From assembly GCA_020086605.1 (NCBI GenBank), contig JACBWW010000015.1, positions 10,823,511-10,887,510 of the forward strand: 64,000 nucleotides of DNA, written 5' to 3'. The DNA is from Lanius collurio. Its lineage: Eukaryota > Chordata > Aves > Passeriformes > Laniidae. This document shows positions 47,283 to 47,877 of the stretch, in pieces (position 1 is the first letter of the stretch; every line of letters starts with the position of its first letter). The notes under the pieces were generated by a model. The model had not been told where the DNA came from. It was given only the letters and a program-made list of their open reading frames with translations, and did not search any database. The translations under genes were made by a program, and so were the position numbers.

Positions 47283-47877
47283 TCAGAAAGGGAAATTTGC
47301 GCTGGGCATATATGGGGGATAAAAGAGCATGGGATAAAAGGGGAAGGTGGGATAGGGGAAAGGATAGGGATTATAGGGATAGTGTCTAGCATATCTACTG
47401 CCTTTGACAGGGGCACCCCCAGGGCCTGTAACACATGCGGCCTGTGGGCCCTTCCTTCCTTGCACAATTTTAAATTTTACTCTTTCTCCTTCTTCTAAGC
47501 TTGGAACATTAATTTGGGGTTATTTTTTACAATAGCAGATTTATGGACAAAAATACTTTTTCCAGTATCATTTTTCAACAAGAAACCATAATTTTTCTTT
47601 ACATTATACCATTTACAGTTCCAAAAACCCTAGCTGCAATAACCTTTTCATTTTTCCGAGTTCCTTTGTTCTTGCTTTCACTTTCAGCTTTTCTCACTCT
47701 CTTGCCGGAGCTGCCGCAGCCGGGACCACCGGGGCCGCCAGCGCGTTCCTGTCGGGGGGTCTGGACTCCTCAGGACTGCGTGTGGGGCCATGCAGGTCCA
47801 GTCTGGCCGTGCTGCTGCACACTGACCCTGCTGGCTGCTCCACCTCCGGCCACCTCTGCACCGCCGTTTGGCGCCAT
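47283..47877 (-). pseudogene. Captured Y-box / cold-shock-domain protein gene, broken
   Basis: Y-box proteins bind mRNA and DNA through a cold-shock domain and package cytoplasmic mRNPs. On the minus strand the likely start is ATG at 47877 (context GAGCATGG, strong for vertebrates), opening MAPNGGAEVAGGG. A Gly/Lys-rich leader stays in frame with the domain start KVIAARVFGTV (47646-47614). The domain then continues with WYNV, RNP1 as KNYGFL (47596-47579), RNP2 as IFVH (47554-47543), KNNP, EEGERVKF and the Y-box signature TGPGGAPVKGSRYA (47429-47388). From domain start to signature is 259 bases against 261 in vertebrate Y-box genes, and without introns. After that a Pro/Tyr/Phe-rich tail replaces the usual basic/aromatic islands and stops at 47283. 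Lesions: TGA at 47772-47770, a one-base loss just before 47611 and a second frame change near 47502. I cannot say which family member (YBX1, YBX2 or YBX3 type) is the source. Confidence 0.85.

What the first reader, a model, noticed from the sequence alone, without database searches (positions are those of the whole stretch)
47283..47877. An endogenous retrovirus that captured a cellular Y-box (cold-shock-domain) gene
Seen in sequence: between two LTRs with matching target duplications, on the ERV sense strand, lies an intronless cold-shock domain with RNP1 (KNYGFL), RNP2 (IFVH) and the Y-box signature TGPGGAPVKGSRYA, preceded by an in-frame Gly-rich leader and an ATG in strong context. The domain is the right length (259 against 261 bases). 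Known: Y-box proteins bind and mask mRNA, and vertebrate Y-box genes have introns within the domain. Processed pseudogenes are rare in birds because CR1 seldom mobilises mRNAs, so packaging and reverse transcription with a retroviral RNA is a more likely route. Inference: a retroviral transduction of a host RNA-binding gene, possibly useful to the element for RNA packaging or translation control. I do not recall a described avian ERV family with this cargo.
Basis: partly seen in the sequence, partly recalled or inferred. Interest (0 to 1): 0.88.

Follow-up and report, generated by a model that had tools for sequence, protein, structure and literature searches.

The report
Dead retroviral insertion carrying a Y-box gene
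An old, broken retrovirus-like insertion in what is probably a bird genome carries, between its two end repeats, an intron-free copy of a cell's own RNA-binding Y-box domain that seems to have changed greatly, becoming strongly positively charged, before this copy landed here.

Summary
On the minus strand two LTRs (49204-48930, 46975-46697; 23 mismatches in 275 columns) with a 6-bp target duplication flank a 1,954-nt interior holding an unidentified ORF, a GC-rich block and a contiguous Y-box cold-shock domain (47646-47388; Pfam, PDB). This copy is dead: two frame breaks in the domain, and a stop after the leader ATG. Nothing found marks a secondary processed pseudogene.

New: 33 of 83 compared residues differ from YBX1, where decay since integration predicts about 8 (0 of 2,000 simulations reach 33). 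Changes are conservative and net charge rises from +1 to +13 (each reached by at most 1 of 1,000 neutral runs). So most divergence seems to predate the insertion, probably under selection. I read this as retroviral transduction of a YBX1-like mRNA, kept as a small RNA-binding protein in a defective ERV lineage.

Whether other copies exist, the decisive test, is unknown: the genome search did not complete in 15 tries. Host, ERV class and parent gene are provisional; the YBX1 letters were recalled.

The parts
48930..49204 (-). 5' LTR (275 bp), TGTGG...CTACA, carries AATAAA
46697..46975 (-). 3' LTR (279 bp), TGTGG...CAACA, carries AATAAA; 23 mismatches in 275 aligned columns and 4 gap columns against the 5' LTR, K2P 0.089
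49205..49210 (.). target-site duplication copy next to the 5' LTR (CCTTTC in element sense)
   Evidence: read
46691..46696 (.). target-site duplication copy next to the 3' LTR (CCTTTC in element sense)
   Evidence: read
48852..48857 (-). GTGAGT, the only GTRAGT in the interior's sense strand, 53 nt before the ATG at 48804: possible splice donor (about 1 expected by chance, by hand)
   Evidence: role inferred
48445..48849 (-). open frame of 134 codons (ATG at 48804) where gag would begin; matrix-like identity is a guess, no family hit
   Evidence: AlphaFold pLDDT 49 is not usable
47700..48479 (-). GC-rich (0.55-0.71), CpG-rich block ending near where the cold-shock domain begins; read as captured 5' UTR/first exon of the Y-box mRNA
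   Evidence: identity inferred, no alignment to the human YBX1 N-terminus
47770..47877 (-). leader frame from ATG 47877, 35 codons, closed by TGA
47602..47769 (-). piece A: Gly-rich then basic leader and first CSD strand (KVIAARVFGTV); no Pfam match on its own
47498..47629 (-). piece B, another frame: CSD with RNP1 and RNP2; Pfam CSD E 1.2e-9
47283..47519 (-). piece C, third frame: end of CSD with TGPGGAPVKGSRYA, then 34-residue P/Y/F-rich tail and stop; Pfam CSD E 2.7e-6
46976..47282 (-). interior 3' of the Y-box frame; no match to the recalled YBX1 C-terminus or 3' UTR, no poly-A

Best explanation
This is a defective ERV, mobilised in trans, that had acquired the 5' part of a spliced host Y-box mRNA (most like YBX1) by co-packaging and template switching, in place of most of gag-pro-pol-env. 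The captured cold-shock domain was then kept for some time as a short, basic RNA-binding protein: it lost YBX1's long basic C-terminal half and its own domain became basic, so that it could bind RNA without that tail. One copy landed here some 10-25 My ago and has since decayed. Shown: provirus anatomy, Y-box CSD, disabled frames, divergence exceeding simulated post-integration decay, directional basic shift. Inferred: template switching, GC-rich block as captured first exon, selection inside an ERV lineage, RNA-binding role, helper dependence.
For: One provirus: LTR pair with TG..CA ends and a matching 6-bp TSD. CSD identified by Pfam and PDB. DNA match to recalled YBX1 CSD 181 of 255 columns, score 186, against 153 of 235 and 124 for recalled YBX3; 0 of 200 shuffles reach the YBX1 score. 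Interior has no A/T run of 7 or more; the longest exact direct repeat around the segment is 10 nt, matched or exceeded in 9% of 200 mononucleotide-shuffled controls. 33 of 83 residues changed against 7.8 expected for neutral change at half the LTR divergence; 0 of 2,000 runs reach 33, also 0 of 2,000 at twice that rate. Replacements are conservative (mean BLOSUM62 0.55; reached by 1 and 0 of 1,000 neutral runs under two mutation spectra) and net charge goes +1 to +13 (0 and 1 of 1,000). 7 of 10 acidic CSD positions lost and one gained; 8 basic residues gained, 2 lost. Seven of eight residues listed as key RNA contacts in YB-1 (K64, W65, Y72, F74, F85, H87, K118, E121; passages of PMC9928419; numbering carried over by hand) are kept; the eighth is E to Q. 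In YB-1 the CSD alone binds weakly and depends on basic C-terminal clusters (passages of PMC6451097).
Against: No second copy seen: none in the window, none in virus contigs, and no genome search answered. Absence of in-frame stops in the compared CSD codons is not significant (P 0.27 and 0.16), nor is retention of the RNA contacts (P 0.097). The excess of third-position differences cannot be used, because the reference is human and not the host. The reference letters were recalled, not fetched. No captured N-terminus, C-terminus or 3' UTR of YBX1 is recognisable. The gag-like frame is unidentified, and PBS and PPT are not convincing by eye.
Confidence: 0.66

Rival explanations
1. Late capture of an already divergent host Y-box gene or retrogene: the basic, fast-evolving CSD evolved as a host gene and the ERV picked it up shortly before this insertion, as a passenger without function for the element.
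For: Explains the pre-integration divergence and the selection signal without any role in the ERV; only one copy is seen.
Against: YBX1 and YBX2 CSDs are very conserved: the zebrafish YB-1 stretch and the other YB-1 stretch aligned (human, as I recall) are the same over those 40 residues and carry the acidic residues lost here. No such divergent host gene is known to me, but no vertebrate database was on hand to look.
Confidence: 0.17
2. Secondary processed pseudogene: a Y-box mRNA copy was inserted by a LINE (or by ERV reverse transcriptase) into an existing ERV and then decayed.
For: Intronless, disabled, single copy seen; Y-box mRNAs are abundant (recalled). A poly-A tail could have decayed.
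Against: No A/T run of 7 or more, no convincing flanking duplication, no recognisable 3' half of the mRNA; divergence about four times neutral expectation from the LTRs, conservative and directional.
Confidence: 0.08
3. The LTRs look too young (gene conversion between them) and the whole Y-box divergence is neutral decay after an old insertion.
For: LTR-LTR conversion occurs (recalled); the domain has two frame breaks and a stop lies upstream. Lack of stops in the compared codons is expected in 27% or 16% of neutral runs.
Against: Neutral decay to 33 replacements gives the observed mean BLOSUM62 in 1 and 0 and the charge shift in 0 and 1 of 1,000 runs under the two spectra.
Confidence: 0.06

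Closest known systems
Oncogene transduction by retroviruses (v-src of RSV, v-sis of SSV; passages of PMC13297096)
   Same: Host-derived sequence between LTRs; such proviruses may lose their own genes and depend on a helper (recalled).
   Different: Cargo is an RNA-binding cold-shock domain, not a growth-signalling gene; here an old endogenous, dead copy.
FAM8A1 transduction by an endogenous retrovirus in primates (Jamain et al. 2001, title and one sentence seen through passages of PMC6987440)
   Same: Host gene sequence carried within an endogenous retrovirus.
   Different: Different gene and function; that case is from primates. Its anatomy was not compared here.
Cellular YB-1 as cofactor of betaretroviral (MMTV) Gag assembly and of MLV and HIV RNA (passages of PMC4486188, and PMC6040738; Bann et al. 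2014 itself not held)
   Same: A Y-box protein working for a retrovirus is reported; its knock-down lowers MMTV particle production.
   Different: There the host protein is borrowed; here its gene piece lies in the element itself.
YBX1/YBX2/YBX3 Y-box proteins
   Same: CSD signature, RNP1, RNP2, seven of eight RNA-contact residues.
   Different: 60% identity to YBX1 over 83 residues, basic domain, no recognisable basic/acidic C-terminal part, short P/Y/F-rich tail, broken frames.
Passerine ERVK elements (passages of PMC11009239) and songbird LTR families (passages of PMC6523648)
   Same: LTR element whose estimated age (11-23 My at assumed rates) overlaps the ERVK activity reported in Passerida from 22.4 My ago; the 6-bp duplication fits class II (recalled).
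   Different: The passages I saw report no captured host gene; PMC6523648 reports a possible herpesvirus-like envelope domain in a TguERVL2 gag. The class of this element is not shown, for lack of pol.

Membership tests
LTR retrotransposon / endogenous retrovirus | Two direct LTRs with TG..CA ends and matching target-site duplication | tested here: met
   LTRs 275 and 279 bp, CCTTTC on both sides
LTR retrotransposon / endogenous retrovirus | gag, pro, pol genes | tested here: not met
   Pfam on six interior frames found only CSD; shorter frames not scanned; interior is 1,954 nt: a defective element at most
LTR retrotransposon / endogenous retrovirus | tRNA primer binding site and polypurine tract | tested here: inconclusive
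   TGG lies 2 nt inside the 5' LTR end and a weak purine stretch before the 3' LTR, by eye; no tRNA set to compare with
Class II (ERVK, betaretrovirus-like) | 6-bp duplication plus class II pol or gag | tested here: inconclusive
   6-bp duplication met; no pol found; gag-like frame unmatched
Y-box protein | Cold-shock domain with RNP1, RNP2 and Y-box-type GPxGxPVxGSxYA end | tested here: met
   in three frame pieces
Y-box protein | Long C-terminal domain of alternating basic and acidic clusters | tested here: not met
   34-residue P/Y/F-rich tail then stop; no DNA match to the recalled YBX1 C-terminus
Processed pseudogene (LINE type) | poly-A tail and own target-site duplication | tested here: not met
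   no A/T run of 7 or more in the interior; longest exact repeat around the segment 10 nt, in 9% of 200 shuffles; age could have erased such marks
Retroviral transduction of a host gene | Intronless host sequence inside a provirus | tested here: met
   position of introns in vertebrate YBX1 is recalled
Retroviral transduction of a host gene | Several proviruses sharing the host-virus junctions | not testable with these tools
   The genome search did not complete (15 identical requests, first, last)

The most novel reading that the evidence does not exclude
A lineage of bird ERVs replaced its own nucleocapsid function with a captured Y-box cold-shock domain. The domain became strongly basic to coat and package the element's RNA, giving a minimal mobile element that carries its own RNA chaperone.
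Probability: 0.17. Interest if true: 0.88.

Novelty: new variant of a known kind. Interest (0 to 1): 0.6.

Why it matters
Retroviruses are known to take up growth-control genes (PMC13297096), and several are reported to use the cell's YB-1 for RNA stability and assembly (PMC4486188, PMC6040738). An ERV that took up the YB-1 RNA-binding domain itself, and shows signs of having kept and reshaped it, would be a natural experiment on how an element can internalise a host cofactor, and would add to the known cargo types. It would also explain an intronless gene copy in birds, where retrogenes are scarce (a 2015 title by Suh, seen only in the reference list shown).

Tried and rejected
Three protein-database searches gave no homologue. 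I infer that the database holds few or no vertebrate proteins, so this says nothing about bird copies. Virus-contig scans for the ORF, CSD piece C and two LTR motifs found nothing, nor did one LTR motif in prokaryote genome contigs; I would not expect these collections to hold bird DNA. Rfam found nothing in the window at its gathering scores. The AlphaFold model of the gag-like ORF (one sequence, pLDDT 49) is too poor to search with, so its retroviral identity stays a guess. Comparing the interior with the recalled YBX1 N-terminus, C-terminus and 3' UTR failed: 54, 93 and 91 of 200 shuffles score as well; an 11-of-12-nt match just after the domain is reached by 18 of 200. CTGATTGG in both LTRs was considered as autoregulation by a Y-box protein; 2.7 are expected per window by chance, so it was dropped. 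All ten paper searches are used. Those aimed at a captured Y-box or host gene in a bird ERV (15, 20, 21, 24, 25, 63) showed none in the titles and abstract starts listed (lists were capped), in an open-licence library only.

Full report
Anatomy. The feature is a provirus-like element on the minus strand. The repeat finder gives one pair of direct repeats (split into two blocks) about 2,230 bp apart, and no others of 40 bp or more in 43000-52000 or of 70 bp or more in the whole window. Their edges, read and aligned, are 49204-48930 and 46975-46697. Both begin TGTGG and end in ACA, and the same six bases, CCTTTC, lie outside each. The LTRs differ at 23 of 275 aligned columns plus 4 gap columns, K2P 0.089. 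With assumed (recalled) rates of 1.9-4.0 substitutions per site per billion years this is 11-23 My. The interior is 1,954 nt; six of its frames were given to Pfam and only CSD was found.

The Y-box segment. Reading in element sense, the cold-shock domain spans 47646-47388, in three frames: piece A (47602-47769), piece B (47498-47629), piece C (47283-47519). Pfam finds CSD in B (E 1.2e-9) and C (E 2.7e-6), not in A; the best PDB matches of B and C are Y-box proteins 1 and 2. At the DNA level the segment aligns to a recalled human YBX1 CSD at 181 of 255 columns (score 186) and to recalled YBX3 at 153 of 235 (score 124); 200 shuffles reach at most 39 against YBX1. YBX1 is thus the likelier parent of these two. 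YBX2 was not compared at the DNA level, and PVKGSRYA is the YBX2 form, so the parent is provisional. The recalled gene letters were checked only by translation.

State of this copy. It cannot make the whole protein: two frame breaks in the domain, plus a TGA 35 codons after the ATG at 47877. That seems unsurprising for an insertion of this age (my judgement, not computed), so it says little about function before insertion.

Did the domain evolve before it landed here? At half the LTR divergence, neutral change gives on average 7.8 amino-acid changes in the 83 compared codons; 33 are seen, and 0 of 2,000 runs reach that, even at twice the rate (mean 15.4, 0 of 2,000). From recalled YBX3 as ancestor the answer is the same (34 seen, 0 of 2,000 at each rate). 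Simulated neutral change to 33 replacements gives the observed mean BLOSUM62 score in 1 and 0 of 1,000 runs, and the observed rise in net charge (+1 to +13) in 0 and 1 of 1,000, under a transition-biased and an observed spectrum. The second allows for the 23 G-to-A among 78 differences. Seven of ten acidic positions are lost and one acidic residue is gained; eight basic residues are gained, two lost. Results that do not help: no stop within the compared codons is expected in 27% and 16% of neutral runs, and keeping seven of eight RNA-contact residues has P 0.097. The third-position excess (41 of 78 differences, 0 of 1,000 runs) is confounded by the human reference. Four reference residues next to the second frame break, and the edges of the domain, were left out of the comparison.

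Mechanism. In YB-1 key RNA-binding residues are K64, W65, Y72, F74, F85, H87, K118 and E121 (passages of PMC9928419), and the isolated domain binds weakly because affinity comes from basic clusters in the C-terminal half (passages of PMC6451097). Here no such half is recognisable; 34 P/Y/F-rich residues follow instead (charge +1), and the domain itself and the 19 residues before it (charge +5) are basic. I infer a compact RNA-binding protein that no longer needs the tail. Cellular YB-1 co-localises with MMTV Gag and RNA, and its knock-down is reported to lower particle production (passages of PMC4486188); it is reported to support MLV and HIV (passages of PMC6040738). A use in RNA stability or packaging is therefore plausible but not shown.

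Route of capture. The domain is intronless, while vertebrate Y-box genes have introns in it (recalled; as in the finding). The block before it, 48479-47730, has GC 0.55-0.71 and CpG observed/expected 0.50-0.96 in its five 150-nt steps; from there to the 3' LTR GC is 0.35-0.49 in the four full steps and 0.41 in the first. I read the block as 5' UTR and first exon; no alignment shows it, and PMC6451097 notes that the YB-1 N-terminus is not conserved. There is no A or T run of 7 or more in the interior, and no exact direct repeat around the segment beyond chance (10 nt, in 9% of 200 shuffles).

What remains open. Copy number is decisive and untested: the genome search did not complete (15 requests). 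The ORF at 48448-48849 sits where gag would begin, but nothing identifies it. The novelty judgement rests on ten searches of an open-licence library only.

Noticed in passing
7739-8152 (+): Open frame with a motif I recall from the C-terminal end of CR1 LINE ORF2 (EHLSYEERLRELGLF); no Pfam match. Weak sign of an amniote, probably bird, host.
   Followed up: partly
46873-46880 and 49102-49109 (-): CTGATTGG, an inverted CCAAT / Y-box-type element (recalled), in both LTRs and nowhere else in the window; 2.7 expected per window by chance.
   Followed up: partly
48857 (-): Only GTRAGT of the interior's sense strand, 53 nt before the ATG at 48804: where a retroviral major splice donor would lie.
   Followed up: partly
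47283-47387 (-): P/Y/F-rich tail after the domain includes YPML, resembling a YPxL late motif (recalled); likely chance in such composition.
   Followed up: no
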